From Physcia stellaris (Eukaryota > Ascomycota > Lecanoromycetes > Caliciales > Physciaceae): a DNA stretch of 64,000 bases. The position numbers and the translations under genes are program-made. The notes beneath the pieces were generated by a model. The model was given only the letters and a program-made list of their open reading frames with translations, was not told the origin of the DNA and searched no databases. Positions 8,994 to 35,679 of the stretch are shown piece after piece. How positions within the stretch are numbered: the stretch's first letter is position 1; each line of letters starts with the position of its first letter. The stretch is taken from contig JABSSW010000056.1 of assembly GCA_018902385.1 (NCBI GenBank), forward strand, positions 222,386-286,385. Direction: 5' to 3'.

Positions 8994-8998
8994 TTTTC

Positions 8999-16015: not shown

Positions 16016-16270
16016 TTGCAATCAAAATTCTCATCAAGATTTTCATTCGCATGATTTTCGTTTACGTTTTCGTTTACGTTTTCGTCATTTTTTCGATTTC
16101 GAATTTCAGATCACGTTTGTTGCATCTGTTTCGATCATTTCAGTTTTCGCAATGACTCGTTCAATTATCGACGTTTTAGTCAATTATATTTTTCGAATCG
16201 CCGGCCGATGAGAGAAATGAAAGAAATGATTAGTCGCTTCGAGACGAAACTGAAAAAAAACGAAAAATAA
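16016..16270 (+). other. KB 3' untranslated region
   Basis: Short repeats (GTTTTCGTTTACGTTTTCGT near 16060-16090) and an A-rich end before the LTR. CGCCGGCCGA at 16199-16208 is a rare surviving CC/GG cluster in this region. No gene is seen. Confidence 0.5.
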
Positions 16271-16452
16271 TGTGACGAACGTACTATGTGTTGATTTCTG
16301 ATAGATGTTTGAATTTTTATTTTATCACATCGAGATTCGAACTCGAATTTCGTTATGATCAAATCATTTACATATGATTTGTCAGATTCTCATAGTTAGT
16401 TTTGCAGTCTAGAATTCTGTTGTTTACTCATATCATTGCATAGCATTTTACA
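16271..16452 (+). repeat. KB 3' LTR (182 bp)
   Basis: It starts TGTGACGAACG and ends GCATTTTACA, followed by TGATT (16453-16457) and the G1 integrase. It marks the right end of composite K. Confidence 0.88.
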
Positions 16453-17403
16453 TGATTATCATCATGAACGACGACTAGAATATTTTGAATAATTGAATGA
16501 AATATGCACAGTCGATGAAATTCGTAAACGTGATTGTCAATGATGAAATCATCAAATCGAAAAATTAGCTCATTAGTCTTTCGATAAAAAGAAAGTTTGA
16601 CGACGTTTTCGTCGTTTTTATTTTGTTGATTTAGCATTGAGCATATCTTTTTCAATTCAAATCGTTGATGTAACTCGCGACAAGCTTTTTGCGAAAATCT
16701 TTCTCAATTTTCATTAAAGTTGTTGTGAAAAAGCATCGAGTTCGTCTTTTTCGAATGCAACGTCAATATTGAAATTGATTAAACGAAAGAAAACGTCAAA
16801 CACAATGTGTTATTTGTTTGACTTGTGACGCAACTCGACGTCGAATCGTTGAATATAGTCGAAAACGCGTACAAATCGAAAATTGAACTTGTCAATGAAA
16901 ATTGTAATCATGTTGATTTGTTTAATTATGTTTAAAGTCGCGTCGTGATTCGTGAAAATGATAATGAAACGTTGTTTCGAGAAATCGATTAAATGTTTTA
17001 TTTTCTTTAACATTCAAACTATATCAACGAACTTTAATTCGATGAGTCAATATTTTGTTTTCGCGTTCGTTAGAAATCGACTAAAAAACAAAATAGATTC
17101 GATAGTTTTTCTAAACGAATATTCTTTATCATTTCATTTGACGCTATTTTTCACGTGATACATCATGTCAATTAGCTCGAATTTCTTGCTAGCATCGAGA
17201 TCGACGTATAGCTTTTTACGAGAGTTCGAATGAACGAGATAGAAAAATTTAATTAGCAAAAATTGTAATGTTTGAAAAAAAACTAGCTTTTCAATAGTAG
17301 AATTCTTAATTCTAGTGTTGCGTGAGTAGATTTTTTTGACATTGTCAATTACAAATTCGTCGTGAAATAGTTCAGTCTTCAACTTTTGAAACGATTTGAA
17401 CAT
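16453..17403 (-). pseudogene. G1 RNase H and integrase N-terminus
   Basis: Minus-strand pieces: 17403-17134 has KKLYVDLDASKKF and YHVKN (RT connection/RNase H start). 17013-16810 has IIIFTNHDATLNIIKQ and FDYIQRFDVELRHKSNK, the RNase H end. 16655-16453 ends with LCIFHSIIQNILVVVHDDNH, the integrase N-terminal region including the first zinc His area, where K begins. Frames are separated by stops. The RNase H Asp in FTNHDA replaces the usual TDH (Asp to Asn). Confidence 0.85.
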
Positions 17404-17433
17404 TTCAGCGTATCAAAACACATAATTTCGTAA

Positions 17434-18034
17434 TCAATTCGTGAAATTTAAATACGTCTTCAGTAATTGCAAAGTAGTAGAAAAGAACAAACGTGAAATA
17501 GTTTTCAGCTTTTTTTCAACGATGACTAGTTCAAAAAAATCAATTTTCTGATCTAGCAAATGAACAGTGAGATAGTCAATGAAAATTTTTTTCGATTTGA
17601 TAGAAATGTTGTTAACTTTGAACATATCGAAAATTTGCTTGAAATGAGTTAGATGTTTCTGTAAAATGTTTGAATGAACAACAATATCGTTTACATATGT
17701 TTTAGCGAAAACTCGAAGCGATCGAAGCAATCGATCGATTTGACGTTGTACGTAAACAAAAGAATTTTTGTAATTCATCACGATTACGTTGAAACTTTTT
17801 TGATTTTTATGTGTGATCACAGTCAATTTATGTTTGTCGTCTGAATGAATTCTTCATTGATAGAAAAAAATTGAGCAATTCAGCACAATAATGTATTGAC
17901 ATTTTAAAACAACTAAAATTATGTCGAATTGAAGAAATAAAAAATACACATTCGATTGAGTGATAACGTTGAAATTTCGAATATTCACAACAGATCGATT
18001 TTTTTTCTTGTCGTTGATCTTTTTTCATACGCAA
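17434..18034 (-). pseudogene. G1 reverse transcriptase
   Basis: On the minus strand, 17826-17434 reads KSFNVIVMNYKNSFVYVQRQ then AKTYVNDIVVHSNILQKHL, the RT palm with the catalytic Y-V-D-D changed to Y-V-N-D, followed by the thumb (IDFFELVIVEKKLKTISRL). The adjoining 18034-17828 carries upstream RT sequence in another frame. The Asp-to-Asn change fits G-to-A after A or G. Confidence 0.88.
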
Positions 18035-18243
18035 AACACAAAATAGTTAAATGAAATAAATTCGTCGATTCAATTAAATCTATTTGATTCATGTAATTTG
18101 TCAAAAGTTTCGTCGACAAACTTTTTATTCTTTTTGTTTAAAAAATATATTTTAATTTTGTCGAATATTCTTTGCTTTCAGTTCGATTTGAGCGAAATTT
18201 TCATTCAGTTTTTTTGAAATAGCTTGACAAAGTCTGTGTTTTT

Positions 18244-18570
18244 TCAAATATCAAAATAGATTGACATCAATTTTGTGATAATTTGCACGACATCGTCGCT
18301 AAATCGATGAATGATGACGTCATTATCGAGAATGATTTTTGTCGAAAATTTCAAATCAAATTTTGACTTTGTATTTTTCAAGTTTGAAATAGTTGAAATT
18401 TCGTTGATGAAAACTAGAAATTGAAAATCGCTATAACAAATCGACGAAAACTGAACATTTAATTTTGAAAAAATTTGACGTTGCGACAAAATCGAATTGT
18501 GAAAAATTTTCGAAATTGCGATTGTGACGACGATAATTTCAAAAATGAAAAAATTATTGTCATTCAACAC
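18244..18570 (-). pseudogene. G1 region between protease and reverse transcriptase
   Basis: The minus-strand open piece (LNDNNFFIFEIIVVTIAISKIFHN and following) lies where Gypsy pol has the protease-RT linker and RT fingers. It has no firm motif. It includes DNDVIIHRFSDDV, which may align to the pre-RT segment. The gap 18035-18243 holds only broken frames. Confidence 0.45.
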
Positions 18571-18609
18571 GTTGATAACGACGTAAATCGCGACGATAAT
18601 TTTTTTGAA

Positions 18610-19345
18610 TCAATTAATTTTATGTTTTTGAATTGAACGTCGTAAAATTAAATCGACGACGTGATTAATCTCGTCGACGTGAATTTGAAAAACATTAATG
18701 TAATTTATTTCGATTATGTGATCGACGCGATAATTTCGAAATATATAAACGAATTGATTGCTTTTATTGCGAACGATAATTTGTTTAGTATTGAAATCTA
18801 CTAAATGAACGTAAAGTGAAAGCTTTAGCTCATTCGATTCGAAGAGATAATTTCGATCGAATGAGACAATCGTATAATGCATTGAAAAAATTAACTCGAA
18901 ACGAAAAAATATTACAGTGATTTTACGAGCATGAATCGAAGTTTGAACAATTATTTTAAACGTTCGAATCTCTAGACTAGTTGTAATTTCACAGCTCTCG
19001 ATGTAAACTGTCTTTTTAGATATGTTAACATCGATTTTTTCTGACTCGATAACGTCATTTTCAAGTAGCATGTTAGTTTTCAAATTATCGATCAAATGAA
19101 TTTTTCTAATGATTTTAACTTTAATCGAGTTATCGTTCTTTTGATCAGAAAAATACATAAACAGAATAACATACTCAGCAATTATATGCTTGTCGACGTC
19201 TAAATCACGTACGAAAATAAAAATAGTCATAGTTTTAATGAATACATTTGAAATTTGTTTTTTGAAAAACTGACGATCGCATAGAACTATGTCAACGTCG
19301 ATGTTTAAGCAAATCGACTCAATTTCAACTATTGATGAAAGAGCT
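18610..19345 (-). pseudogene. G1 aspartic protease
   Basis: On the minus strand the N-terminal piece (about 19345-19250) contains CLNIDVDIVLCDRQFF, aligning with the active-site pattern L-D-T-G-C-x-V-T-L-V-D-R. Catalytic Asp is Asn and Gly is Asp, both G-to-A after A or G. The main open piece 19230-18610 continues with IRKIHLIDNLKTNMLLENDVI, a hallmark of this fungal protease family (IHLVDxLKANMLIGNDI), and YIESCEITT. A second copy of the domain is in G5 at about 46120-46843. Confidence 0.85.
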
Positions 19346-19365
19346 ACGTGAATACGTGCGTAAAT

Positions 19366-20085
19366 TCAGTTTCGAAAATCATGATCAATGTCGACGTCTT
19401 TGTTGAAATCGACGTTTGAAACAATGATGAAAATCGATGCAAATTTAGTTTTCTTAAAGAAATCGAAATGAGCATTTGTGAAAGACTTCGACGTTTTTGA
19501 TACAATAGTTGAGTCAAAATCGATGATTTCGATTTTCGATTGCGTGATAAACGAGCTCGTAAACTCGTCTGACTTTGAAACTGTCAAAAGTTTTTTAGTT
19601 GAACTTCGCGTAATCACACTGATGTTCTGAATAATCATAATAGTAAAAGAAAATTGATTAAATACATTTGCTGAATAAATCAAACTAGTTTTGTCAAAAC
19701 AATCGAAACGAAAATGTTCGTGTAATTTATTGTTGAACGAAAAATCATTGCTACACTTTTTGCAAATAGCTATTTTATTCGATTTTGACGAAAATACTTC
19801 TGACGTGATCAAATAAACAACGTTGTCATTCTCGTCTTCGAAATCGTTGTAGAAATTTGATTGATAATATGAAATATTTTTTGAAACATGATAATCGTCA
19901 GCATTCTTCTCGTCAAAGTAGTCTTTTTCAATTTTTTCAGTTTCGTTATTTTCGTCAACGTTGTAAACTTTAGCTTTGTCAGATTTTTCAAATTTTTTGA
20001 CGTTTGATTTGTTCGATTTTCGATTCGAAACTGAAGCGAACTCGTTTGAAAATTTTAACAAAAGAGATTGTCTTGCAATTGACAA
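19366..20085 (-). pseudogene. G1 Gag C-terminal part with C2HC zinc finger
   Basis: Open minus-strand piece of 239 codons. An acidic, low-complexity N-terminal part (VDENNETEKIEKDYFDEKN) precedes CKKCSNDFSFNNKLHEHFRFDC (19699-19764), a C-x2-C-x12-H-x4-C finger with the F-x5-L-x2-H spacing of classical C2H2 fingers. It lies between the capsid region and the protease, where many elements have a CCHC knuckle. The same finger type is in G5 at 45830-45895 and, with His as last ligand, in the Z/KA/KB proteins. Probably binds element RNA or host DNA (inference). Confidence 0.75.
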
Positions 20086-20461
20086 AACAGTTGAGAATGA
20101 ATCGAAAGATTTTTGTTGATAACTTTTTGTAAATTGACGAGACTGATAGATTGATTGAGTTTGATAAATCGAATTTCTATATTGATAAAAGTTGTAACTC
20201 GATGACGATCACATATACGTTTGACTAAAAAGATTGACGTAGAATTGTTGACTAAAGTCAACATCTTTTGTTCGATTCTGTTTACTAAATCGATTAAATC
20301 GATCAGCATTGTTATTGAAATTTGAGTTGTTAATTTGATCGCGATGACGAGTTGTCATATTCATTTATACACTTTTTTTCGCATTCAACTGATTTAAAAA
20401 TGTAATCAAAATGATGTTTTCAGACGACTCAGAAATTTGCGCTCGAAAATTCAGCTCGAAA

Positions 20462-21541
20462 TTACTTCAAACAGTGATACATTGATGAAATACTGATGAG
20501 AAGTTTGCAATTCTGACATGTCGAAAAATATTTTGCATGTAATTTCGAGATTTGCGTTCTCGACGAACGTCGACATAAATGTAATTTTCGATTTGTAGTT
20601 TTTTCAGAGCAGTCGACGTTCGCTTTTGAATCGTTTGATAAAATGAGTGCATCAACGTTCAATGTTAATTTTTCGAAAAAAATTCTTCTCAATCTCAGTT
20701 AGCTTCGCGTTATATCACGTTAAAACATGATTCTTTAGACAAATAAACATCAGCTTTTTGATTCTAAAATCGAATGAAATTTTTTCAGATTCTTAAAATG
20801 ATCAATGAAGATGAAAACGTTTCGATAAAAATTGTGTCGATCAAAATTGACAATGAACTGATTTGTGTCGATTGAATTTTCATAGTCAGAATCGAAATAG
20901 TTCACGTTTTCAGCAAATTTGACAGCTGATTGAAGAATATTATTGTCAACAAAAAAAAATGTTTCAATAGCAGATCGAGATATTGAAACGAAAACGATAA
21001 CTACGATCATAATGTCATTTCAAAAAATTTGATCGATTTTCGATGATGATTGAATTAAAAACATAATGCGACGAATCTTTTCGATTTGAGTGAAAGAAAA
21101 TGTTTGACTATTGAAAAAAAATGTCTGACTATTGTCAATCTGAATGCTGATTGAGCGACGTTCATTGTTCGTGATATTTGAATCGACAATAAATTGACGA
21201 AAAGCGTTTAAATCAAAATCAGAATTAGTGATGAGCGAGTAGCTAGAAATTAATGACGAGAAAATAGAATCACGAATTTCTGAATTGCTATTTCGTCGAA
21301 ATTTTGAGCTAATAGAAATTTCAGATTGAATAACTGTAAAGACTTCGAATCGAATAAAAATATCGAGTTTGAATACGAAAAACTGTTCATTCGAAAATTG
21401 TACACGAAATATTGAAAATGACGACGAATTGTTAGCAAACGAGTTAGTTACGATTTCGAATTTAACTGAGAAACTTCGAAAGACGTTCGATTGTCGAAAA
21501 TCGACAATGTCGATTCGAAATTGATTCAAAGCGTTTTGCAA
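20462..21541 (-). pseudogene. G1 gag (capsid region)
   Basis: Minus-strand pieces 21541-21020, 21010-20750 and about 20655-20467 together form a capsid-like Gag. Recognisable parts are YFDSDYENSIDTNQFIVN and FYRNVFIFIDHFKNLKKFHS, the start of the retrotransposon capsid fold in this clade, and YIYVDVRRERKSRNYMQNIFRHVR further on. Reading frame changes between pieces. Open frame 21932-22144 upstream is probably leader. Confidence 0.7.
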
Positions 21542-22243
21542 TGATATTACGTCGTCAATTCATTGAGATGAATAAACAACGTCGTGAGCTCGTGTTCTAG
21601 AAAATTTGTAAATTTTAACAATGAAAATCTCAATCGTACGTCTATCTTCGTTGTTGAGCAATGAGTTGAAAAAATGATCAATTTGCAGAAACTCGTGTAT
21701 CGATCACGCAAACTGAGTAGTTTGATTAAAAATTGAAATCAAAATGTCGAAAAGATGCTAGAAAAATGTCTGAGATTGTCTTTCTAGTCAATGATAAAAT
21801 GTAGAAAACTTTCTAGACTAACTGAAAGATTTTTTCAATCATAGAAAATTTGCGACAAAAAGCAGATACAAATCAAAAAAATGTAATAATAGTTTATTGC
21901 AAAAGAAGCAATCTAATATCAAAAAATGATTTCAAAATGAGACAACGAACGTAAATGAAAAAAAGAAAAAAAGTGAAAAAAACTCGAATAAAAGCAGAAA
22001 TTCAATAAAATTTGAATTCATTTTCTTAGACAAATGCGAATAGAATTCGAATATGACGTAATCACTTTGACTCAACGCAACGATGAGACAGCGAAATAAC
22101 GAAACACATCGAGAAAAAGAAAAACTTGTTTGATGAAATAACATTTACAATCAAATAATGATAAATTTCTGATTGCATTGTTAGTCGAATGATTGATGAT
22201 TAACAAATTAATTTTGATGATGTGATAAATGATGCTATCAAAT

Positions 22244-22426
22244 TGTTGATGTATTGAATGTAAAAAGTTTGATTAACTATCTAGAAATCAATGATCAGAT
22301 ATATATCATAGTAATTACATAAACAAGTCACTCAATTGACTGAATGTCAGTTGATTGACTGAATGCTAAATACAGAAAATTTGTCTATTTTGTTTTCAAG
22401 TTCTAGTCACATGTCAATTCATAACA
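22244..22426 (-). repeat. G1 5' LTR (183 bp)
   Basis: It pairs with 837-1014 and ends CATAACA, followed by ATGAC, the mutated copy of the GTGAC target duplication. The uninterrupted right arm keeps GTGAC. Confidence 0.9.
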
Positions 22427-22431
22427 ATGAC

Positions 22432-24134
22432 AAAATCATTACGCAAAATTCATAATTTCAATTAAAATGCAATTTTTTTTTCGTAATTCGAACGATAATA
22501 TCGATATCGTTTGTAAATTTCGACATATTTTTTTCTTGCGTAACGAAACGATATTATCAATATTTATTTGCGACATTTCGACAAAATAATTGTATTAAAC
22601 GATCAAGATTCGCGATATTTATTCGTCGATTTTTGAATAAAACGATTGTATTGAAAAATCAAAATTCGCGATATTTATTCGTCGATCGTTGAATAAAACG
22701 ATTGAATTAAACGATCAAAATTATCAATTTTTATTTTGAATTTGATTCGATATAAATAAAAACGTATTTTTTTGAAAATTTTCGCGAATTCGCGATATTT
22801 TTTTTTCGTCGTATTGTTTTTTGTTTTTTATTCGATGCGTCAATTGTTTTTATAATATAATAAATGTTGTTTTTGATTGTTTTCATTCATTTGTTGTATC
22901 GTTTTATTTTATTTTCAAATATCGATATCGACGATTAAAATTATTTTTTTTGTTTCGTATTCATTTATCAATCGATTTTTTATCGTGAAAAACGTCGTTT
23001 TTCAAAAATTTTATTCATTTGTTGCATCGTTTTATTTCATTTTCAAAAAACAACATTGATAACAATAATTATTTTTTTCGTTTTCGATAAATAACGATTT
23101 TCAAAATCGAATATTCAACAATAAATGTACACATCAATAAAAACGCGAATTTCGAACATTTTCACGTACGCAAATCATTTTACATTTTTTATTATTTTTT
23201 GTTTTCGAATATTTGTTTATTTTCGCGCAATTCAAATCGACAAAATAACGACAAATTTGATTAAATTTTGTGTTATTCGATTCGATTCGAAAAACGCACG
23301 CAAAAAAAAAATTTAATATCAAAATTTAAATTTTTTCATTGTTCAAACGTTTTGATTTTTTATTGATCAAAACAATTTTTATATCAACGTTGATTTGATG
23401 CAAAAATTTTTCATTGACAAAACAATCGCGATTTTTGACACAATTCGAATTTTTGATAAAATTTTCAATTTTTGTATTGATTTTGTTTAACATTAAAATT
23501 TAATTTTTTATTTTTTATTGATTAAACAATTTTTGCATTAACGTTTATTTGATACAAAAATTTGTCATTGATGAAATAATCGCGATTTTTGACATAATTC
23601 AATTTTTGATAAAAAAAAACAACATTGATTACGAATTTACGAATTTTTAACAAAATTTCGACAATGTGACAATTTCGAAAATAACAAAATGACGTTTTTT
23701 TTTAAACGAAAAAACAAATTTGCAATTTTTTTTTATTCGATTGAATTTGTAAAAAATTGAAAAATTCGACGAAAAAAAACAAAACGAATGAATTTTTGAC
23801 AACAATTCGTAAATTATCGAAATTGTTAATCATGACGAATAATTAACGTTTGTAATTTGATAATGACGATATATTTGTTCGCAACGACGACAACAAAAAA
23901 ATAATGTAAAAATAAAATGAAAAATATAAAACGATTTGTTTATTAATTAAATTAATGCGAAATTTAATTACATCAAATTCAACACACGTTAAAATTACGA
24001 ATTATTTTTAATTATATACGCAATTTACATATATTGCGACATTATATTAAAACAACAATCGATAAACTTTTTAATATGTGAATATATTTCAAAAATTTTG
24101 TTTAACAAAATAAACACAAACGCATTTAAAAACG
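22432..24134. repeat. Left arm of large inverted duplication, segment 2
   Basis: It matches the reverse complement of about 37790-40375 once the 0.97-kb insertion at 38005-38975 is removed. No credible gene is present. Internal tandem repeats are shared by both arms: a roughly 53-bp unit near 22580-22730 (CGCGATATTTATTCGTCGAT), a roughly 125-bp duplication near 22886/23011, and a roughly 170-bp duplication near 23340/23510. The segment ends at the AATTT target duplication of Z (24135-24139). Confidence 0.8.
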
Positions 24135-24139
24135 AATTT

Positions 24140-24347
24140 TGTTGAAATATAATTTTCGCAAATGTGTTGTGCAAATGTTGCAATCAAAATTCAATTGATA
24201 TAATTTGACGAAAGAAAAACTAATGCGTTTTTGTTGAAATTAATATTTTAACATTCGCACATTTTTTGTGTTTTCATTTGCATGTAATTTATTAAAACAA
24301 CGAGATTCAAAACAATAGAATGATAGTCATTCATGATTTTTTCAATA
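24140..24347 (+). repeat. Z 5' LTR (208 bp), heavily mutated
   Basis: It starts TGTTGAAATATAA and ends TTTTTTCAATA. It aligns without gaps to 27217-27424. About 45 transitions separate them, nearly all C-to-T at CpC/CpT or G-to-A at GpG/ApG in this copy. Confidence 0.95.
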
Positions 24348-24527
24348 AATTATGAGAATCGAATTAACAGTTTTCGTTATTACATTTAATATCAATTACA
24401 ACAGCATGACAAAACATGTCAACAATAATATCTAGTCGTCGAACAATACAACAAATTTGCAATATTTCAACAATAATCAATTTTCGAAACATTCAATCTT
24501 GTCAAATTCGAAATCGACTCAATTGCA

Positions 24528-25967
24528 TTGACAACATTCAATATTTTGATACAAACGATCAATACATTTAGTATTCTCAGTTACGTCGATAACATTTATC
24601 TATTTACATTTTACGAATTCGTCTATTTATCGAATTTATTTCACGATATCGAAATCTTTCGCGAAATCTATCGCGCAGTCAGAATGACTGTTTTTATTTC
24701 TATTTATGCGAATTTCGCACTCGCATCTATTTTTATTTTCGCGATCACGTTCAAATCGACGTTCGTATTTTTCATTTTCGAATTTGATTTTTTATCTTTT
24801 TCGTCTGCTCTTTGCGATCACGTTTCTGAAGATCATTTCATGACGCAAAATCTGAAAACGCTGTATAACATGCATCTGACAGAGAATGCTAAAATTTTAA
24901 GATGCAGTTGATACGTGCAAATCAAAAAGTCACAAGAAATTTATCATGCTCGAAAGCACGAGTTGATCATGAAAAGCAAAATGAAGCAGAAAACGAAAAA
25001 GTTGTTGAAACAACAGAAAGAAGCTCGTCTGGTCAAGAAACGGGCTGAAGAATATACGTGCAGACGTTGCAAGCATTCGATCAAATTCGATAGCAACACC
25101 AAATTTCACGAGCATATCCGTACCCGTCATGCAAAGAAACCGAAGACAGTTGTTTCACCCTCCTTGCAGGCCTCGAAGTCAATTGCCTCATCTCCTACTC
25201 CTCCTGCTTCGTCACCTCATTCGGTCACCTCGTCACCTGCCACGTCACCGAAACTCCTACCTCTCTCGATTCCTACACCAGAAGTTGTACGCGAGCGTTC
25301 AGAGAGCGTATCACCTTCATCGTCGGCTGCAACACCTGCAACACCAAGAAAGCCGATATCCTGGGCAGAAATTGCCTCACGACCCGTCACTGCACCGAAG
25401 CCCTCTCGTCTCCCGATTGCGACACCCAAATCGGTGTGCAAACCGTTGAAGAATGCAAGCGTTGCTTGCCCGCCTACTCCGCCTCGAACCCCACCATCGA
25501 GGCCCTATCTCACTGTGGACGACCTGTTCCACATGTTCGCTGGGAAGCCGAGTCCGTTTGGCCTGCAGCCAAGTCAGAACAAGCCGTTGTCTCCTCGCAG
25601 CTTCGGCAAATGCAGTCCCGCCAGCAAATGTGGCCCCATACAAAGCCGCATTACGTCATACTTCCATGCGGTGGCCTTACCTGCTTCCAAATCGGCCAAA
25701 TCCGAAGCATTTGCACCAACTCACGTCTCGGTGAAACACTCGGCCCGCACGTCACCTTCGCGGACCTCTCGATTTTCTTCTCCTTCGATGCGCCCCTCTC
25801 TCTCAAGGGTCTCTCGCTCGCCTCCTGTTTGCAGGCATTGCCAAGGGCGTTCCGCCACCTATTGGCCTACTGGTTGGGCCATGCCAAGTGCCTCAAGAGT
25901 TGGGAACAATGGGATACCCATGGGGATACGTTTCGCTCCTCCCCGCCCTACTTTGGGGGAGTATTGA
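24528..25967 (+). pseudogene. Z C2H2 zinc-finger protein with PIP-box-like motif
   Basis: The main open frame is 24915-25967 (350 codons). The same frame continues upstream to 24528 across a single TGA at 24909-24911, likely a mutated Trp codon, so the original start is upstream. Counting from 24915: basic, coiled-coil-prone region (20-46), finger CRRCKHSIKFDSNTKFHEHI...H at residues 49-72 (C-x2-C-x14-H-x4-H; 25059-25130), a long Ser/Pro/Thr-rich region, SWAEIASRP (about 149), DDLFHMFAGKP (about 207), and QSRITSYF (243-250), an exact Q-x-x-I-x-x-[FY]-[FY] match. No transposase, protease or RT motif. Normal codon use after 25030 differs sharply from the AT-only flanks. The finger and the VDDLF and PIP-like motifs recur in KB. 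Confidence 0.8.
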
Positions 25968-26280
25968 CCCTCCTACTCCGGGGGAGTCACTACTTGGGGG
26001 AGTTAGCATGTTGTTTGTTTGTTTGTTTTGCCCGCCCGCCCTCCCTATTAACCGTTGATCGGCCATGGCCTGGGGGAGCATAAAAGTTGTTGTTTTAATG
26101 GATTCGATGTTCCGCCCCTTCCGTCCTTTGAAAGTTGTTGTATGCTTTGTTTTATTGTTTCACTAATGAGTAGGGACTTACCTCTGTTGTGGCTTCGTCT
26201 TGATCTAACACGAAAACTCATCTACTCCCTACACTCTGCGGCTTCGTTATTCGCCCGATAAATACGAGGGGGAGAGAGTG

Positions 26281-26419
26281 ACAGTACAGCTCAGAGAAGC
26301 GTACTGTACGTACAGTTGTTAGAAGAGGAGGAGCAGCCTACTAGACAGTACAACTTCGGGAAAGTGTACTGGCCAAGATGCTCACGTTCAGATAGTACCG
26401 CTTCGGGGGAGCGTACTAT
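26281..26419 (+). repeat. Three consecutive hairpins with GTAC-containing stems
   Basis: Hairpin 1: ACAGTAC (26281-26287) pairs with GTACTGT (26301-26307). Hairpin 2: CAGTACAACTT (26346-26356) pairs with AAAGTGTACTG (26361-26371), with one bulge or mismatch. Hairpin 3: ATAGTACCGCT (26392-26402) pairs with AGCGTACTAT (26410-26419). Loops are purine-rich (CGGGA, CGGGGG type). They may fold in element RNA. Confidence 0.6.
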
Positions 26420-27019
26420 GCAGTCATTACATACTCGGCCTTGCAGAGCAGAAACTCGATCAAGAAGGACAAGTAGTGCTGGAGATATCTGACCTTTTCG
26501 CATACTAATCGACCTGGTTCTCTGGCAGGTCTTAGTCAGGTCAGAAAAGCTCGATTCTGCACCCTTTGCATCGGTGTATGCCCGCAATGCATGCCGCGCA
26601 TTCGATGCATTACCTTCCTTATCGATTTCTCGACCATCTGGCATACCTTATGGACTTCCTACAGCCAAATTGCATAGGTATTCGACCATTGATGCCGCAA
26701 GAAGTACCTGAGAACCCTGAGACATAATGATGCTACCAGATCATGGTGTGACCTGCACTCTCGTTCAATATCGCAGAACTCAGGCACAGGGTACTTACTC
26801 CATGGTGTACCTTCTAGCCAATCCTAGGTACCAGATCCCACATCGATGCGCCACCTCATGGAGAAGCAGATGCAGAACCTCGCAATCCTTCAGATATTCG
26901 GTCGCACGCCTTACGAATCGGCCTTACGTCATACCTGAAGTTATGGACCTCGATTCGTTCGTTTCTGCAGCCTTCGCATCGGTGCATGACCTACCGTATA
27001 GGATCTACGTCATACCACG

Positions 27020-27170
27020 TTGGGGGAGCTTGCTCGGAAGCTCCAGGCAATACACCGTTGGGGAAGCTCTAGGAGCCACATCGCTGGGGGAGCTACATCG
27101 CTGGGGAGCTCGCTCTGGGGAGCTCCAGGACTCGTCGCCGGGGAGCTTGCACGGAAGCTCCAGGCTGGGC
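27020..27170 (+). repeat. GGGGAGCT / GGAAGCTCC repeat cluster
   Basis: Imperfect units built on GGGGAGCT, followed by CGGAAGCTCCAGG or CGCTGGGG, recur about every 15-45 bp. They have partial dyad symmetry (GGAAGCTCC, GGGAGCTCC). Located just upstream of the polypurine tract. Confidence 0.55.
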
Positions 27171-27209
27171 TCGTTAGGATACAGGGCAGGTGGCACAAGC
27201 GGTTGCTGT

Positions 27210-27216
27210 GGGGGAG
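27210..27216 (+). other. Z polypurine tract
   Basis: GGGGGAG lies immediately 5' of the 3' LTR, the usual position of the plus-strand primer of LTR retrotransposons. Confidence 0.75.
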
Positions 27217-27424
27217 TGTTGAAATACAGCCTCCGCAGGTGTGCTGTGCAGGTGCTGCAGTCAGGATCCAGTTGGTATAACCTGACGAAAGAAGAACTAG
27301 TGCGTCCTTGTTGGGACTAGTGTCTTGGCACCCGCACACTTCTTGTGCTCCCATCTGCATGTAACTTACTAAAACAACGAGATTCAGAGCAATAGAATGA
27401 TAATCACTCATGATTTTTTCAATA
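27217..27424 (+). repeat. Z 3' LTR (208 bp), nearly unmutated
   Basis: It starts TGTTGAAATACAG and ends TTTTTTCAATA, and retains CC, GG, CT and AG. One position (about 27402) is A where the 5' LTR keeps G, so it is not wholly untouched. The AATTT that follows opens directly into saturated AT-rich arm sequence. Confidence 0.95.
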
Positions 27425-27429
27425 AATTT

Positions 27430-27910
27430 GAAATTAATTTTAAACAATTTGAAACAAAATATGAATCGTTGTATCGAAATTTAAAATTTCAATTATCGTT
27501 ATTTCAATTATTGTTCATCATCGAATAATTGATTTCAATTGAATATTAAAATTTCGTTTTTCAAATTTTTCATTTTTTTCGTTTTGATTTTCATTGAAAT
27601 TTTCATAATCAAAAACATTATAAATTTTCGAATTCATTTTTTTAATTATCGTATTTTAAAATCAACAAATGAAAATATATTATTGTCGAAATTGTTTTTA
27701 TATCGATAAAAACAATCGCGTTTTTTTCAATTTATTCGCGTAAATATTAAACATTATCAATTTGAATCGCAAATGATAAAACGATAAAAAAATATATATT
27801 TGCAAAATCACGTTTTCGTAAAAAAAATTATCAAAATAAACAAACAAACAAAAAAATTATATCGAAAATCGATGTTAATTATTTCGACAATATCGAATTA
27901 ATCATTAACG
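27430..27910. repeat. Left arm of large inverted duplication, segment 3
   Basis: Reverse complement of about 37320-37790 (for example TATCGTTATTTCAATTATTG near 27496 matches about 37690). No gene is seen. Interrupted at about 27911 by the 0.88-kb repeat. Confidence 0.75.
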
Positions 27911-28790
27911 ACAAGTTTGCTCGTGAATTTTTTCAAAAAAAATTCGTGCAAAGTTTCAGAATTAAATTTGAATTTGATAAAATTGCGAAAATCGATATCT
28001 CGCAATTGCTTTGCGATTTCAACGATTTCGCATTTTAATAGCATTTGCATTCGACAAATAAAACATACAAACAAAAATTCGTTTTGAAGTTCGAAATGAA
28101 TTCTATTCAAATAATTAATAATATCGAAAATCGATCGAGTGCGCATTAAATTATGATCGAAATCGCATCGAAACGTTGCAAACATTTGAAAAAATTGAAT
28201 TTTCAAAAAACGAAACGTTCGACGATGTAATCTTGAAAATTTCAAAACTATTGCGATAACGAATCGATTTTAATGATTTTTGAAACGTTAAAATGCGCTT
28301 ATTTAATTTTACAATTCTGAGTAATTAAATGAAAATCATATGTGATTGTTGATCGAGATGCAAAATGCGAAACAACTGTACAGACAACGAAAAATTGAAC
28401 GAAACTTTTTCGCAAACATCTCAATTGACGATTTGACACAAATTTGACAACGACGAAATCTTGAAAATCTCAAAACTATTGCGATAATGAATCGATTTTC
28501 GTTATTTTTGCAATTTTGAATTGCGTTCTTTTTGCTTTACAATTTTGATTGTATACATGACAAAAACACGCGATTGTCATATACGATGCAAAAGATAAAA
28601 TAATTGTACGAGCGCAAACGATGTTGATGATTGATCGAAAAAAAATTAGTTTATTTTTTCTTTTTGAAAATTTGAATTATGTATTGATTAAATTTATCGA
28701 ATTTAACGAATACGAAATCAAAATTGATTCAAATTTTTCTCGATCGATCATTCGCGTGAAGCGAATTTACAGAATATTTTATTATAAAAA
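27911..28790. repeat. 0.88-kb dispersed repeat, copy 1
   Basis: It shares its start (ACAAGTTTGCTCGTGAATTT) with 29709 and its end (GCGAATTTACAGAATATTTT) with about 30325. A roughly 235-bp module (AAAACTATTGCGATAA... ) is present twice here (about 28215 and 28450) and once in copy 2. It is absent from the right arm, so it is an insertion. No LTR or terminal inverted repeat is clear, and open frames are not conserved between copies. Nature unknown. Confidence 0.6.
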
Positions 28791-29525
28791 AAGTTTATAT
28801 AAATTTTAACAATTTTATCCAAAAAAAAAATTAAAAAAATTGTCGAAAATTCGATTATCAAAATTATAATTTATAAAAACGTAATCGATATCAAAATTAA
28901 AAAATCGTTGAAAATTTATTACAATTCAAACGACAAAAATTCAACAATAAAAAAAATTATATTATTTTTTCGAATTATCGTGCGCATATGCGTTTGTTAA
29001 ATAATTCAATAACAACAAATGCATTAAAAAAACGACAAATCAATTTTATATCGACGAGAAATTGAAATTTATATAAAAACACGCACATATAAAAAATGAT
29101 ATCAATTAATAAAATATGTTGAACATATTAAACAAAAATATTCACAACGATAAATGAATGAAAAAAAATTTTGTCGTGAAATCGATGATTGAAAATATTT
29201 TCGTTAATCGTTATTCGTTGTATTATCGCGATTGTATCAAAATATTGAAATTTTTCATAAAATACAAATTTTTTACGAAAAATTTAATATATGTGTTTAT
29301 TCGTAAATACGAAATTACGACGTCGAACAAATCATATGTGACAAACGATAATATTCGAATATAAACAAAAATGTATACGAAAAATTAATAATAACGCGTG
29401 CAAAAAAAATTGTTTGTCGAAATGATAATAATATCGATCAAATTAATGAATAATCAATTTAAATTGAACGTTATAAATAACGTATCATAATTATAGTCGA
29501 TATATATAATTATAACGAATTTGAA
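28791..29525. repeat. Left arm of large inverted duplication, segment 4
   Basis: Reverse complement of about 36626-37320. Shared signposts include GTGCGCATATGCGTTTGTTAA (28980) and ACATATAAAAAATGATATCA (29086). Similarity stops near 29525. Open frame 29158-29364 is composition-driven. Confidence 0.75.
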
Positions 29526-29708
29526 CGATACAATTATAAAACAACGTTTTCGATCAAACGTTATTTTATTGAATTTAATTTCGCTATTGATTGACAAAAA
29601 CAATATAAAAACGAAATTTTATTATAAATTTATAAAAATCATGTTATGTCGTAAATTAGCAATTTTTTGCGAAAAAATTAATAAATTAATTTTTGTTATT
29701 ATATCAAT

Positions 29709-30350
29709 ACAAGTTTGCTCGTGAATTTTTTCAAAAAAATTCCGCGCGAAGCTTCAAAGTTAGAGCTAAATCTGATAAGATTGCGAAATTCTCTCGCGAC
29801 TTCATCTATTTCGCACGTTAATTGTATTTGCACTCAATGAATAAAACTTACAAACAAAAATTCATTTTGAAGCTTGAAGTGAGCTCTATTCAAAAAATCA
29901 AACAGATTGAAAATCGAGCGAATGCGCATTGAATTATAGTGAAAAGCGCATCGTTGCATTGCAAATACTGCGAGAGTTGAGACGAAACACTTCGCGAACA
30001 GACATCTGACAATGATGTAATCTTCGAAGTCTCAAAACTATTGCGATAATGAATCGATTTCTGTTATTTTTGCAACGTTGAAATGCGCTCAATTTGCTTT
30101 ACAATCTCAATTAGATAGACGAAAGTCATATGTGATTGTTGATTGATGTGCAAACTGCAAAACAATTGTACGAATTCAAATGAATTTTAATGATTGAGCG
30201 AAAAGAATTTGATGATTTATCGCATTGAGAATTTGAATTCTCAATTGATGAAAATTATCGACTTTAAACAATACGAACGCAGAATTGATCAGAATTCTTC
30301 TCGATCGATCACTCGCGTCAAGCGAATTTACAGAATATTTTATTATAGAA
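29709..30350. repeat. 0.88-kb dispersed repeat, copy 2 (642 bp)
   Basis: Same ends as copy 1 but with one internal module. It keeps more CT, AG and some CC (TTCCGCGCGAAGCTTC near 29740), so it is less mutated than copy 1. Open frame 30194-30463 overlaps its end and is not conserved. Confidence 0.6.
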
Positions 30351-30547
30351 AGATAGTATTGAAACAATATACGATTTTTGAAATCTCGATACGATACGCA
30401 AACGACAAATTTAAAAAATATTATTCAATTTTAATGAATATATCGATTGATTATTTCGAATAAATATTAATTATAAATGTTAAAAACAAATTTTATTATT
30501 CGATTTATATAATATCAAACAAAAAATTTAAAAATTTATATTCACAT

Positions 30548-30771
30548 TGTCACGATTTCAGCGCAAACTTTTTGATGATAATTTTACAAATCTGAATTTC
30601 TGTCAAATCTAGTCTAGAACTCAATTCTATACGAGATTTTTATAGACATTCGACATTTTGTATTGCTAAATTTTCTTTTCATAACTAGTATTCTCGTTTG
30701 ATATTTCTAATATTAATTCTGTTTCTAATCATGTGATTTCTATATGATTTAGTCGAGATCAATTCGTGACA
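30548..30771 (+). repeat. N 5' LTR (224 bp)
   Basis: Starts TGTCACGATTTCAGCG and ends AATTCGTGACA. Against the 3' LTR, roughly 19 CpC/CpT-context and five CpA-context transitions. Both LTRs carry mutations the other lacks. Confidence 0.88.
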
Positions 30772-32964
30772 TAATATTAATTATTCATCTTTTTGACGAT
30801 GTGACGATTATTCAAAAAGATGTAACTATTCGTCAAAATCGTATTGACGATGACGAGCGATTTCAATACGTATTATCTACAAAATATCGTCGTTGAAAAA
30901 TCAAATATTTTCGAGAATATTACTTTTCAATTTATTTTTTCGCTGATGATGACGATTATATCAAAAAGATTTCTTTTCGTTTCTGATTGATAGACAACAA
31001 CGTCTCGTCAAATCTCACATCTTTGAAATTGCATAATTTTCGTATAGATTGAATACGAAATGTGAATGCGAAATAGCAATCAATAAATATCGATTATCGA
31101 AACAACATGTCAAAAAAATGTTGCACAAATGTTTTGCAATACGAAAATCATTTGAATCAAATTGAACGAATAAAATCGTTTACAACAACAAAAAAATAAA
31201 AAAATTTTCAATTCGAAACGTGTTGACGTATCGAACGTACACATCAATTGAACGTTGACAAATTAATACGATTGAACGTATTAATGAAATGAATTAAATT
31301 TTCAACAACAATCAAAAATGAATGACGTGATTTTCATCAAATTAGAAAATGATATTGTATTTTGCATTTGTTTGAATTTCATACGATTTTAAAAATTCGA
31401 AATTTTCATTTAATTTTCTATCGAAATTTTTATACAAACAATTTTGATTTTCTATTCGAAATTTTTTGTCGAGATTTTCAAAAAATTCTCGTTTCATTTC
31501 ATCGATTCGTCATCTGATCGAGATCAAAACATCAAATCGATTTTACAAACGAAATCAATTTGCAAAAGTTTGAGAAATTGACAAAAACACACATTCAATT
31601 CGAACATGTATTTGTTTGAACATCTCGCAACTTTTTTGCATCGAGACGATTTCGCAATTACAAAAAAATCGATCAATCAAAAGTTCAAAATTATATACAA
31701 TGCGAAAACGTCGAATTCGAGAAATTTTCAACAACGTATGATGATTTAAACAGAATTCGAAATGTTTCAATGCAAAAATGAAAAATGATGAAAAATATTC
31801 ATACAAATCAAATTTGTTTTCGTTTTGACATTTCAACGTTTTTCGTTTACGAAAAATTTTCATGTTTCGAAGCAAATTCATCATTTTCATTCGAATCGAT
31901 TTTGAAAAATTCGAAAATCAACAAAAAATACACATATAAATGAATCATGTTTTTGTTTTTACATTTTCGCATTTTTCAATTATCGTGAATTTTATTATCA
32001 AACAATTGACGATCGTCGATAAATTCGCGAATTTTTTACGTTTTTTTTTTCGAAATCGAATCAATTAAAATGAATTTGTTGAATGATCAATAGTTTGCAA
32101 TTACATTTGAAATGCATTCGCATGAATCATAAATTAAATTTTTGATTCAAAGATCGTCGCAAAAACTTCGAAATAAAAAAGAAAATATTTCGTCTTTGCA
32201 ATTTATTTTTTCGACATCAGATATTTTTTGTTAATTTGATTCGTCATTAAATCGCAAATATTTCTCGTCATATTTATGTTAATTCGCATGCAATTTGATA
32301 TTTGCATTGATTTATGTCTTTTCGAAATTTTTCGTTTTTCGACGCATGTATGATATTTATTCTTTCGACATCAAATATTTTTCATTAATTTGTTTGATCA
32401 TCAAATCGCAAATGTTTTTTATTATGTTTATGTCGTTTCGCATGCGTTTGAAGATATCAAAAATTTTATCATACAAAACGAATTTGCATTCGTTTAGATT
32501 TTTTCGATTTTTTCGTTTTTCGACGTTTGTATGTTGTTTTTTTCGATTAAATCATATTGCGATGCAAAAAAAAATGAATTCGATATTCATTTACTTCGAT
32601 GCAAAATTTTGACGATTTTGCATTTTTCAATTTTTTGTTTTTCAAATATCGTTTTTGCGTTATTTACAGTCAAAATTTAAATCACATGAAAAGTTGAATC
32701 GTGTCAAAAACATCTTTAGATGTTGTTGTTCGATTTTATTGAATTGAAAAAATAATTGAAAAGATCGAAAAATTGATGATCGTGAAATTTTCAATTCGAA
32801 AACATAATCAAGATTCTCAAATCACGTGTTTTTCAAAATTTTTTAACATTGAAAATCTCATTCAACAAAATCGCATTGTTTGTAAATTCTAATTATTATT
32901 TATTGTTTTGCATCAATTTTGAATGCATCACGTCAAACTTTTTGCACAAATTTAGTCTATTGTA
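30772..32964 (+). other. N leader, no gene; tandem duplication near 32211/32365
   Basis: I see no conserved coding sequence; 31555-31890 and 32295-32612 look compositional. A roughly 154-bp tandem duplication has TCGACATCA...ATCGCAAAT units starting at 32211 and 32365. The first bases after the LTR (ATATTAATTATT...ACGATTATTCAAAAA) recur at about 57755-57800. Confidence 0.5.
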
Positions 32965-34110
32965 ATGACGTCAATCAAGATTTTTAGTTTTCAATTGCAC
33001 GAACAGTTTGTCGATTTTCGATTGAATATCGAGCACGAAATGATCGTCTTTTATAATTCGAATATCGAGATTCACGAAGTTTTCAAAAATCAGTTGAATT
33101 TTCAAACTTTGTACATCAAATTTCGAACTCTGAAGCAAGAAAACGAAATTTTGAAACAGAAAAATGCTCGTTTTCGAATTCGTCGTAACGAATATCGTCA
33201 AAAGTCTCATCAATTGAAAAAAATGATAAATAATTTTCGTTTACAACTTAATAAACGTGAAAATGTATACGATTCGAATGCAAAACATGCAAAACAAATT
33301 CGAAAATCAGACATTTTACGTTTTGATTTTCACTCATTCAATCGATCGAACAATTCGTTTTTTTTCGTCATTTTTACATTTTTTGCTTTCGAACGTTTTT
33401 TATTATTTTATGTTTTCGCATCACATTTTGTCAACATTAAATATTTTGACATCGATGATTTCTACGACGATAAAAAGAAATGAAAACAATGAAAAAAAAA
33501 TTTGTTGACGAAAATTTGAATTTGTTTTTTGCAATTTTCTATCGAACAACATAAAATCAATTACGTTCGTCGTTATACGAAAGAAATTGCATATGACATC
33601 ATCAAAACTCGAACAAATATCGACAACGAGAATTTTTATTCAACAATTGACGAGTTATTGAAAAATTTGAACGTTAATTTCGATCAAAACAAAAATATCA
33701 AGCAACGTAAAATTTACGTCAAAATTTTTGACGATAATTTTCGAATGATCGAAATCGAACAATTCGAAATTTTTATTACTCGTTACATCGTTGTCGTTGC
33801 TGATTTTCAAATTATCGATGAAATTTTGATATATCAATTAAAACTGAAATTGTCATTCGCTTTACGAAATTTCATCGATCATTTGACAAAGACTCACAAA
33901 TATCACGAATTCGTGAACGATTTTAGATATATCGCACAACACGTCGAAGAACTGAAAATCGAACAAAACGAAAATAAAAACAAATCATATTCGAATTTAT
34001 ATTCATTGACAAAAAAAAAACATTTAGATGTAAAGAAAGTCTGTTATAAATGTCATCAATCAAAACATAAAATCAATGATAAAAATGCATTTTGCAAACA
34101 CATTTCATGA
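32965..34110 (+). pseudogene. N Gag with coiled coil and CCHC-like knuckle
   Basis: Two open pieces, 32965-33483 and 33529-34110. The first is coiled-coil (TLYIKFRTLKQENEILKQKN) and ends in hydrophobic, mutated codons. The second starts in MQFSIEQHKINYVRRYTKE, then FEIFITRYIVVVADFQ and LRNFIDHLTKTHKYHEFVND, features of retrotransposon Gag capsids. It ends in CYKCHQSKHKINDKNAFCKH (about 34041), a CCHC-type knuckle with slightly altered spacing. The 46-nt gap between pieces contains stops. It could once have assembled particles and packaged element RNA. A diverged relative lies at 58960-59980. Confidence 0.72.
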
Positions 34111-35442
34111 ATGTTGAAAAAAACGAAACAATAAATCAATCGAAATATTTTTATCAAACATTTTATCAATCATCGAAACAATTCATTTCATCGAATTTTT
34201 CGAAGTTCGCATGCGAAACATTTCAACATCAAATATAATCAATCAATCAAATTGCATGAATTACAAAAAACTCAATTCGTTCAAATTCGAAATTTTTGAA
34301 TCAACATACGTTCGCGAAATCGATGTCGCTTTGTTTGTTTGATTGTTTGTGATTTAATCATTTATTTATTTGTTTGCATAAAATGTTGTTTTGTTCAAGA
34401 AATCGTTGAAGAATTTCATTTACTTTTTATTACTTTACATCTGATTCGATCGTCATTTTCGAATTATTTCACGACTTTGCAAAATTCGCTTTCGAATTAA
34501 CAAAACTAATAAAATTTCATTTATTTACTCGATTATACTTTTCGTTGTCGTTGCATTCGCTATGAATTTCATGAATAATCAATCGTTTTGACATACATTC
34601 AAATCAGATTCACGTTAATTATTCAATTTGTCAATCATTTGAAAAATCGTCGTCGAAATTTCGATTTAAAGAAAAAGATATTTAGATTTTCAATTTCACT
34701 TTTTATTCAGATTTAGATTTTTCATTTTTCGTTTCGATTTCAGATATTTTGCATTAGTTCACATTGTTATCAAATCGCAAATATCTCGAATCATGAATCA
34801 AAAATGAAAAAAATCGACTTTGCAAAAAGATTGAAAATGTTGATCGTTTTTTTCGTTTTTTTTCATTTTGCAATCGTTTAATTTCGAATATTTTTCAATG
34901 ACGTGTCAATACATTTAATTGCAAATATCAATGTTCATGTCTTGTCGTGAAATTTCGAACAAAAATTCGAAAATGATATTTTTTTTTCTTTTTGTTTATT
35001 AACTATTTATTGCATGCATGTTCGAAAATTTGCAAAAAAAACACACGCGTCATCGTCTAAATGAACGCGTCATTTTCGCATTTTCATTGTTTTAATAATT
35101 TTTTTTTTATCGATTTACGATTGTTTCGATTCAAATCGATTTTCTAAATCGTTTCATTTATTTTGTCATTTCGTGAGTCTGTTCGACATATCAATCACTC
35201 ATTTGACATCGATATTAGTGTTTCAAGTCGTATGAATTCGCGAACTCGTTGACATCGAACTGAAAAACGAATTCGCGAAACGAAGAAAATCGAATTGAGA
35301 CAAAAATTCTACAAAACATGAAGTCAAAAAATATCAAAACAAAAAAGTCGCTGACATCTCGTTTTTGATCAAAAAGAACATTGTTTTTCAGAAATTTTCA
35401 AAGTAATCGTCGCAAAAGCTTCGAGTTTAAAAAGAAAAATAA
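34111..35442 (+). other. N 3' non-coding region
   Basis: No gene. Short repeats AAATCGCAAATATC occur near 34770 and 34920, resembling those near 32250. The run ends in an A/G-rich stretch (TTTAAAAAGAAAAATAA) before the 3' LTR. Confidence 0.5.
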
Positions 35443-35666
35443 TGTTACGATTTCAACGCAAACTTTCTGATAATAACTTTACAAATTTGAATTTTTGTCA
35501 AATTTGATTTAGAATTCAATTTTATACGAGATTTTTATAGACATTCGACATTTTGTATTGCTAGATTTTCTTCTTATAGCTAGTATTCTCGTTTGATATT
35601 TCTAATATTAATTTTGTTTCTAGTCATGTGATTTCTATATGATCTAATCGAAGTCAATTCGTAACA
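35443..35666 (+). repeat. N 3' LTR (224 bp)
   Basis: Starts TGTTACGATTTCAACG and ends AATTCGTAACA; same length as 30548-30771. Confidence 0.88.
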
Positions 35667-35679
35667 CACACGAACATTG

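What the first reader, a model, noticed from the sequence alone, without database searches (positions are those of the whole stretch)
24140..27424. RIP-like mutation with CpC/CpT preference, read directly from paired LTRs
Seen: the two 208-bp LTRs of Z align without gaps. By hand I count about 45 differences, all transitions: about 42 are C-to-T followed by C or T (G-to-A preceded by G or A), three at CpA, none at CpG. Within runs of C the last C before A or G is kept. Known: RIP in Neurospora strongly prefers CpA, and the basidiomycete form prefers CpG contexts. A CpY-directed process sparing CpA and CpG fits neither. Inference: a different enzyme specificity.
Basis: partly seen in the sequence, partly recalled or inferred. 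Interest (0 to 1): 0.9.

Follow-up and report, generated by a model that had tools for sequence, protein, structure and literature searches.

The report
Transposon mutation that spares CpA and CpG
In a lichen fungus, transposons are riddled with C-to-T changes, as in the known fungal defence called RIP, but they fall almost only where the C is followed by C or T, the opposite of the usual target, so standard RIP measures miss them.

Summary
The two 208-bp LTRs lie between matching 5-bp target duplications and differ by 45 transitions and 0 transversions: 42 at CpC/CpT, 3 at CpA, 0 at CpG. It is a genome-wide rule in Physcia stellaris, a lichen fungus. Over 29 other copies of the element, C-to-T rises with mutation load at CpC and CpT and barely at CpA or CpG (rates about 29: 11: 1: 1 in the 14 mutated copies). 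In the most mutated window DNA, CpC is gone, CpT nearly gone, CpG at genic density, CpA at three quarters of it. Standard RIP indices of 64 window kilobases positive. In-frame stops in reverse-transcriptase matches are mostly TGA (249 of 285); the 13 mutated window ORFs lack Gly and Pro. Mutated tracts tend to reach one element end. Best explanation: a RIP-like process with inverted target choice, CpC > CpT >> CpA, CpG. Three cytosine methyltransferase genes are candidates. Which one acts, and when, is not shown.

The parts
24135..24139 (.). target site duplication, 5' copy (AATTT)
24140..24347 (+). 5' LTR, mutated at nearly all CpY sites
   Evidence: CpC 16/16, CpT 25/29 changed
24140..25100 (+). 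mutated tract: 5' LTR plus about 750 bp of interior, CpY rising gradually to normal by 25100
   Evidence: profile from 24100 (CpY per 100 bp 0, 2, 5, 4, 4, 7, 4, 11, 10, 16, 24)
24912..25967 (+). 351-aa open frame with a C2H2-like zinc finger (motif read by eye), probable gag position
   Evidence: ORF; the motif comes from no call
25100..27424 (+). unmutated GC-rich interior and 3' LTR, used as reference for other copies
   Evidence: CpC 137 per kb
27217..27424 (+). 3' LTR, essentially unmutated (one CpY change)
27425..27429 (.). target site duplication, 3' copy (AATTT)
1..24139 (.). mutated flank, CpC nearly absent (0.5 per kb in 1-22 kb), CpT partly left
27425..64000 (.). mutated flank, CpC absent or nearly so; CpT near zero in 36-43 kb and 51-64 kb
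5069..5863 (+). 264-aa reverse-transcriptase remnant with no Gly, Pro or Trp
10496..11929 (-). 477-aa open frame with no Gly, Pro or Trp

Best explanation
Transposon DNA in Physcia stellaris is attacked by a RIP-like C-to-T process that reads the 3' neighbour of the C but prefers CpC (rate 1), then CpT (about 0.4), and nearly spares CpA and CpG (about 0.035 each). It acts on both strands, in tracts of roughly 0.5-2 kb that tend to reach one end of a newly inserted element, and repeats until CpC is gone and CpT nearly gone. Shown: transition bias, context, order, both strands, sparing of the genic DNA sampled, tracts. Inferred: the agent is one of the three cytosine-5 methyltransferases (RID-like, second RID-like, DIM-2-like), because fungal RIP depends on that class and reads the 3' base; the tracts grow inward from already mutated, presumably heterochromatic flanks; the timing is sexual.
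For: Window LTR pair: 42 of 45 changes at CpY, 0 transversions. 29 of 29 copies summed: CpC 1606/8584, CpT 926/8426, CpA 308/8556, CpG 404/7108, with transversions .037-.058. The slope against CpC load is .47 for CpT and .04 for CpA and CpG. At sites conserved in clean copies: CpC 754/2659, CpT 306/2347, CpA 40/2695, CpG 23/2000. 26 other LTR pairs: 327 of 359 transitions at CpY, 50 transversions. The 5' base has little effect, NCC .287-.337. Other repeats, 19 of 144 pairs used: CpC 34/41, CpT 227/355, CpA 207/861, CpG 127/603. Genic loci keep normal CpY. In-frame stops in RT matches: TGA 249, TAA 33, TAG 3. DNMT genes present.
Against: No link between any enzyme and the mutations. Timing and dependence on repetition were not tested. 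15 of 29 copies are clean in the part aligned, though L023, L027 and L040 of these have CpY changes in an LTR, so the process is slow or episodic. Mutating one LTR and not its identical partner 3 kb away is not what simple homology-driven RIP predicts. CpG has a small but significant slope with load (.040 +- .009; CpA .042 +- .016). CpA is about a quarter lower in the most mutated regions than in genes, and one old repeat pair with no CpY left shows CpA 14/37: sparing is strong, not absolute. Tracts are not always at an end: L033's lies in the centre, L030 peaks inside, L031 is hit throughout.
Confidence: 0.72

Rival explanations
1. A cytidine deaminase of AID/APOBEC type edits transposon DNA or its single-stranded intermediates with a preference for a 3' pyrimidine.
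For: All changes in the window pair are C>T or G>A, on both strands. Eight PF00383 matches exist. Of seven scanned, two also match PF18785, named 'Invertebrate-AID/APOBEC-deaminase', and one (L063) weakly matches SNAD4, an AID/APOBEC-like family, below its cut-off.
Against: Known AID/APOBEC enzymes read the 5' base (recalled); here the 5' base has little effect. The two PF18785 proteins are closest in the PDB to 7dry/7drz, the Aspergillus oryzae Rib2 riboflavin deaminase (PMC8256712, search listing and abstract start). PF08210 found nothing, but its controls were silent too, so that is no proof of absence. One other PF00383 gene reads like dCMP deaminase by eye; the remaining five were not identified.
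Confidence: 0.1
2. Two processes: one enzyme removes CpC (throughout the mutated DNA seen), another removes CpT (only some regions).
For: In 1-22 kb CpC is 0.5 per kb while CpT stays at 57 per kb; in 36-43 kb both are near zero.
Against: Across 29 copies CpT rises with CpC (slope .47, Spearman .89), and one process at 2.6: 1 gives most of the same picture.
Confidence: 0.15
3. The one-LTR pattern comes from gene conversion or ectopic recombination between a mutated and a clean copy, or from misassembly.
For: Strong differences between the two halves of single elements.
Against: Matching 5-bp TSDs on the window element and, as cut, on 15 of 26 other copies. In the window element the decline is gradual over about 1 kb. 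The nearest of 41 other matches to the mutated 361 bp is only 90% identical (list is a lower bound). Even bins chosen for heavy mutation have CpC .72 and CpT .34 changed, not a copy of a saturated donor. It would in any case not explain the context.
Confidence: 0.05
4. Generic damage: dipyrimidine (UV) mutation or unrepaired deamination under weak selection.
For: CpC and CpT are dipyrimidines; lichens are sun-exposed.
Against: A C after a pyrimidine but before A or G is spared: TCA 37/832, TCG 53/1214, CCA 25/963, CCG 41/744 in mutated copies. 14 genic loci keep normal CpY. CpG, the usual deamination site (recalled), is spared.
Confidence: 0.02
5. Ordinary CpA RIP misread through saturation.
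For: CpT-biased families have been reported in other fungi (PMC4352252, PMC6180176, passages).
Against: CpA is a retained context. In the C. truncatum CpT families the CpA substrate index is .08-.12, so CpA is lost there; here it is 0.99 or more in all 64 window bins.
Confidence: 0.01

Closest known systems
Repeat-induced point mutation of Neurospora crassa (RID, DIM-2)
   Same: C-to-T on both strands of repeats, genes spared, 3'-base reading, AT-rich compartments, RID and DIM-2 homologues present
   Different: Published order CpA>CpT>CpG>CpC (PMC5496416, passage). Here CpC>CpT>>CpA, CpG: the least favoured context becomes the first and the most favoured is spared
CpT-biased RIP signatures in Magnaporthe, Botrytis, Sclerotinia, Anisogramma, Colletotrichum truncatum
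   Same: CpT is a main target
   Different: They come with CpA signatures or CpA loss (PMC4352252, PMC10998396, PMC6180176, passages); no CpC preference is described in those passages
CpG-biased mutation in Microbotryum and Tuber (Masc2/Dnmt1 class IIA in Microbotryum; MIP-like)
   Same: repeat-linked C-to-T
   Different: CpG is spared here; CpG density equals that of genes
Hypermutation in Rhizoctonia solani AG8 (basidiomycete)
   Same: In its SNP table CpC is the densest raw class: one per 214 bp, against CpG 370, CpA 422, CpT 491 (PMC4014442, passage)
   Different: SNPs of a heterokaryon, described by its authors as CpG-biased; sparser in repeats (CpC 301 bp), so not repeat-directed, and CpA and CpG are not spared
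RIP in other lichen fungi (Endocarpon pusillum, Cladonia rangiformis, Cladonia metacorallifera, Gyalolechia flavorubescens)
   Same: mutated transposon or AT-rich compartments in lichen fungi
   Different: Endocarpon has classic CpA-type indices (PMC3897900); C. metacorallifera and G. flavorubescens score on CpA-type indices (PMC7882544); the context was not given for C. rangiformis in the passages seen (PMC12542154)

Membership tests
RIP (repeat-induced point mutation), broad sense | C>T and G>A transitions, on both strands | tested here: met
   45 transitions, 0 transversions in the window pair; 359 to 50 in 26 other pairs; both strands within tracts
RIP (repeat-induced point mutation), broad sense | confined to repeats, genes spared | tested here: met
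   14 genic loci normal; AT-rich bins (8 of 56 sampled) depleted. Only 14 stretches of 4 kb plus three gene loci were sampled, and the AT-rich bins were not shown one by one to be repeats
RIP (repeat-induced point mutation), broad sense | sequence homology itself triggers mutation over the whole repeat | tested here: inconclusive
   the two LTRs differ by more than .25 in CpY loss in 10 of 13 mutated elements; no unique insert was tested
RIP (repeat-induced point mutation), broad sense | premeiotic, sexual timing | not testable with these tools
   needs crosses or ascospore sequencing
RIP (repeat-induced point mutation), broad sense | RID and/or DIM-2 homologue in the genome | tested here: met
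   four PF00145 matches at three genes, L009, L010, L011/L012; requirement not tested
Canonical CpA RIP | CpA is the preferred site; TpA/ApT high and (CpA+TpG)/(ApC+GpT) low | tested here: not met
   CpA .036 against CpC .187; 0 of 64 bins pass the RIPper thresholds
CpG-type (Microbotryum, Masc2-like) mutation | CpG preferred | tested here: not met
   CpG 0/10 in the window pair, 9 of 359 in other pairs
RID/Masc1 methyltransferase family (second gene, L009) | C5 methylase domain with PPCQ loop, groups with RID/DmtA and not DIM-2 | tested here: met
   PF00145 E 2.6e-33; PPCQ and EET motifs aligned with the L011 group and Eurotiomycete homologues; own clade of 19 rows, SH-aLRT 99, rooted on DIM-2 (quick tree, very long outgroup branch, warnings of long branches). 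Neurospora RID itself was not in the tree
RID/Masc1 methyltransferase family (second gene, L009) | required for RIP | not testable with these tools
   needs gene removal
AID/APOBEC hypermutation | AID/APOBEC deaminase with 5'-base preference | tested here: inconclusive
   5' base has little effect; PF18785 matches are Rib2-like; weak SNAD4 match below cut-off; PF08210 search uninformative

The most novel reading that the evidence does not exclude
A lineage of lichen fungi runs a RIP variant in which a second RID-family methyltransferase, or DIM-2 with changed specificity, targets CpY, spreads edge-inward from mutated heterochromatin into new insertions, and disarms transposons by removing Pro, Gly and Trp codons rather than by making many stops. 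The same protein signature in other assemblies suggests that it is widespread and unseen by CpA-based RIP tools.
Probability: 0.35. Interest if true: 0.88.

Novelty: new variant of a known kind. Interest (0 to 1): 0.77.

Why it matters
RIP has been described by its CpA preference. A 2025 survey of 1,239 fungi concludes that RIP-like defences share it and lists 130 RIP-active species in four classes, none of them Lecanoromycetes (PMC12543289, section 9 read), although its context-free k-mer screen does name Lecanoromycetes among classes with non-coding enrichment (figure legend). Here is a genome whose transposon DNA is saturated with C-to-T change at the other contexts, and a window which standard indices score as free of RIP (0 of 64 bins). 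It makes the question of what sets RIP target choice testable by comparison: three candidate methyltransferases in one genome, other lichen fungi with CpA-type indices, and a sharp readout. It also shows that a RIP-like process can leave long open frames, which gene callers may take for genes.

Tried and rejected
Rejected: canonical CpA RIP, CpG-type mutation, UV-type damage and recombination as the source of the context (see rivals). The lead 'Inv-AAD deaminase' was dropped as Rib2-like. A search of IMG/VR for the RT remnant gave no related locus. The tree does not settle which RID-like gene is the orthologue of Neurospora RID; DIM-2 is a very distant root. The search for homologous proteins names almost no source, so the taxonomic reach of the signature is open.

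Literature limits: ten searches in an open-licence library only; 15 papers opened by term search within the text, plus one outline and one named section. Within these I saw no report of a CpC-first, CpA-sparing RIP. Either could bear on novelty. Opened with nothing found for the terms asked: PMC11969663 and PMC2432034.

Rows dropped: one search used one non-overlapping set of alignments of 150 bp or more for 29 of the 30 element loci (L013 is the window's own copy); one search lists 63 matches, of which 30 were cut out as loci. One search was a first pass on one strand that gave 11 of 29 copies, with L025 on an unintended short stretch; it was replaced. One search used 26 copies in which two LTRs could be set; L039, L041 and L042 were left out. 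Its LTR limits were taken from BLAST, and L014, L033, L034 and L036 are partial. Its genic density leaves out L051, L054 and L058, which contain AT-rich DNA. One search used 13 mutated and 11 clean elements; L023, L027 and L040 were in neither group. One search used 19 of 144 pairs (GC difference at least .06, each low region once) and takes the higher-GC copy as the start, which favours C-to-T in every context. One search scored 150 of 527 candidates; one search holds 149 typed entries for its 150 rows. One search used 42 chosen homologues plus 3 genes of the genome. One search lists 120 of 223 hits. One search scanned 7 of the 8 deaminase matches.
Full report
WHAT IS THERE. The element at 24140-27424 is one LTR-retrotransposon insertion: two 208-bp LTRs (TGTTGAAATA...TTTTTCAATA) flanked by the duplication AATTT/AATTT. 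LTRs are alike at insertion (established knowledge of retrotransposition), so their differences arose afterwards. There are 45, all transitions: 16 CpC, 26 CpT, 3 CpA, 0 CpG by the 3' base of the C-bearing copy; 44 of 45 hit the 5' LTR. With the 3' LTR as the start, CpC 16/16, CpT 25/29, CpA 3/38 and CpG 0/10 sites were changed.

THE ORGANISM. The held genome has 44.0 Mb in 147 contigs. Its RID-like protein (L011) is 99% identical to a Physcia stellaris protein on a contig of 1,184,035 bases, exactly the length of contig C5. The published assembly is 46.57 Mb in 184 scaffolds, long-read and Illumina-polished, from an ascospore culture, GC 43.3%; the main text has no whole-word 'RIP' and no 'methyltransferase' (PMC7513301, passages). 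Physcia is a lichen-forming ascomycete.

GENOME-WIDE TEST. 29 other copies aligned to the unmutated part of the window copy give C-to-T at CpC 1606/8584 (.187), CpT 926/8426 (.110), CpA 308/8556 (.036), CpG 404/7108 (.057); transversions at the same sites are .037-.058. 15 copies are clean in the part aligned and 14 mutated. From the clean baseline, mean rates in mutated copies are .310.119.011 and .011: CpC:CpT 2.6, CpC:CpA 29, CpC:CpG 29. CpT rises with CpC (slope .47), CpA and CpG hardly (.042 +- .016 and .040 +- .009). At sites where 90% or more of clean copies agree.284.130.015.011. In 150-bp bins chosen for CpC at least half changed.72.34.056.079, the last two near transversion level. 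Polarity: 1050 of 1286 CpC events and 453 of 662 CpT events lie where at least 80% of clean copies have C, against 84 of 175 CpA and 65 of 211 CpG events, so much of the CpA and CpG signal is older family variation. The preceding base has little effect (NCC .287-.337). 26 other LTR pairs give 183 CpC, 144 CpT, 23 CpA and 9 CpG of 359 transitions, with 50 transversions.

OTHER FAMILIES. With this family masked, 19 of 144 repeat pairs among the held loci (those with a GC difference of at least .06, each low-GC region used once) give CpC 34/41, CpT 227/355, CpA 207/861, CpG 127/603; these are older and noisier, with transversions up to .16. Among 150 scored RVT_1 matches (of 527 candidates), in-frame stops are TGA 249, TAA 33 and TAG 3 (149 rows typed, 10 with none). 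CpC hits turn TGG into TGA, while CpA hits give TAA and TAG; CpG hits would also give TGA, from CGA (enumeration).

COMPARTMENTS. Per kb on both strands, 14 genic loci have CpC 119, CpT 131, CpA 137, CpG 111; window 36-43 kb has 0, 4, 106, 106; window 1-22 kb has 0.5, 57, 128, 112. CpG is unchanged, CpA about a quarter lower in the most mutated part, CpC gone. Of 64 window kilobases, 0 pass the RIPper thresholds (from PMC7882544, passage) and 57 have CpY/CpR under 0.35; of 56 sampled kilobases elsewhere, 8 are AT-rich (GC under 0.40), and those 8 have CpY/CpR 0-.46 against .69-1.68 in the other 48.

CODING CONSEQUENCE. CpY change makes stops only from TGG: 2.1% of possible hits, against 13% for CpA. 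The 13 open frames of 150 aa or more in the mutated part of the window hold 3,272 residues with 0 Gly, 0 Pro and 1 Trp; the other 4 of 17 overlap the unmutated island and have all three (summed from its list). A search with one of them gives 223 proteins, 120 listed; of these 34 have no Gly, Pro or Trp and 75 have under 2%; 94 of 120 have Gly+Pro under 1% with Gln+His+Arg over 8%, against a Gly+Pro median of 12% in 158 methyltransferase hits. The query selects for such words and the sources are unnamed; some may be Physcia. One hit (P0292) lies on a contig of 1,140,637 bases, a length not found among contigs C1-C6 here. So the signature probably exists elsewhere; its reach is open.

TRACTS. 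Mutated stretches tend to include one end of the element. In 10 of 13 mutated elements the two LTRs differ by more than .25 in CpY loss; the edge-over-centre excess is .334 against .099 under rotation, p = .012. Exceptions: L033 (central tract), L030 (inner peak), L031 (hit throughout). Flanks are mostly already mutated. This suggests spreading inward from mutated surroundings, reminiscent of the DIM-2 branch of RIP (two pathways are described in PMC12543289, passage), but it rests on 13 elements.

CANDIDATE ENZYMES. PF00145 finds three genes: L010, DIM-2-like (my label; PF00145 plus DUF7893); L011, RID-like; L009, a second RID-like gene. In a quick tree the L009 group (19 rows, SH-aLRT 99) and the L011 group (17 rows, 95) are separate, and Heterodermia has one of each (P0007, P0080). 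Both keep PPCQ; L009 has MEET like the two Eurotiomycete homologues, L011 LEQT. Nothing here shows which acts. Deaminases: eight PF00383 matches; the two with a strong AID/APOBEC-like Pfam match are nearest to Rib2, and a third matches SNAD4 weakly.

COMPARISON. N. crassa: CpA>CpT>CpG>CpC; in T. reesei CpA and CpG lead and CpC is last (PMC5496416, passage). CpT signatures elsewhere come with CpA signatures or loss. R. solani AG8 has CpC as its densest raw SNP class, but sparser in repeats. A 1,239-genome survey concludes that RIP-like defences share CpA preference. Two other lichens that I place in Lecanoromycetes score on CpA-type indices, so the Physcia pattern may be lineage-specific. Verdict: works like RIP, fails the canonical context test, and is best called a new variant.

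Noticed in passing
window 5069-49383, 13 ORFs: Long open frames in mutated transposons contain no Gly or Pro and almost no Trp; gene callers may annotate them as genes.
   Followed up: yes
window 9665-11929, 15110-16015, 19366-20208, 24912-25967: Several different elements encode proteins with a similar C2H2-like finger (read by eye) at what looks like the gag position.
   Followed up: no
window 1-22000 against 36000-43000 and 51000-64000: Two tiers of mutation: CpC gone but CpT about half left, against both gone; may record age or number of rounds.
   Followed up: partly
L014-L022, L025, L026: Clean copies with few LTR differences (0-6 transitions, 0-5 transversions) sit mostly in mutated flanks (L017 does not), so the element was active recently and escapes for a time.
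   Followed up: partly
G000 C6:765836 (L061) and C6:791557 (L009): A Rib2-like deaminase with an AID/APOBEC-like Pfam label lies about 25 kb from the second RID-like gene; probably coincidence.
   Followed up: partly
P0205, P0211, P0282: Some relatives from other assemblies keep Trp while lacking Gly and Pro; they may have been called with TGA read as Trp, or show extra CpG change.
   Followed up: no
G000 C5:1166521, C12:60312, C39:289506, C52:255340: The four best-scoring RVT_1 matches have no in-frame stop; possibly young elements of other families. Three of the four were asked for and not granted.
   Followed up: no
PMC4014442, Table 2: In Rhizoctonia solani AG8 CpC is the densest raw SNP class although the authors stress CpG; the base composition behind it was not checked.
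   Followed up: no
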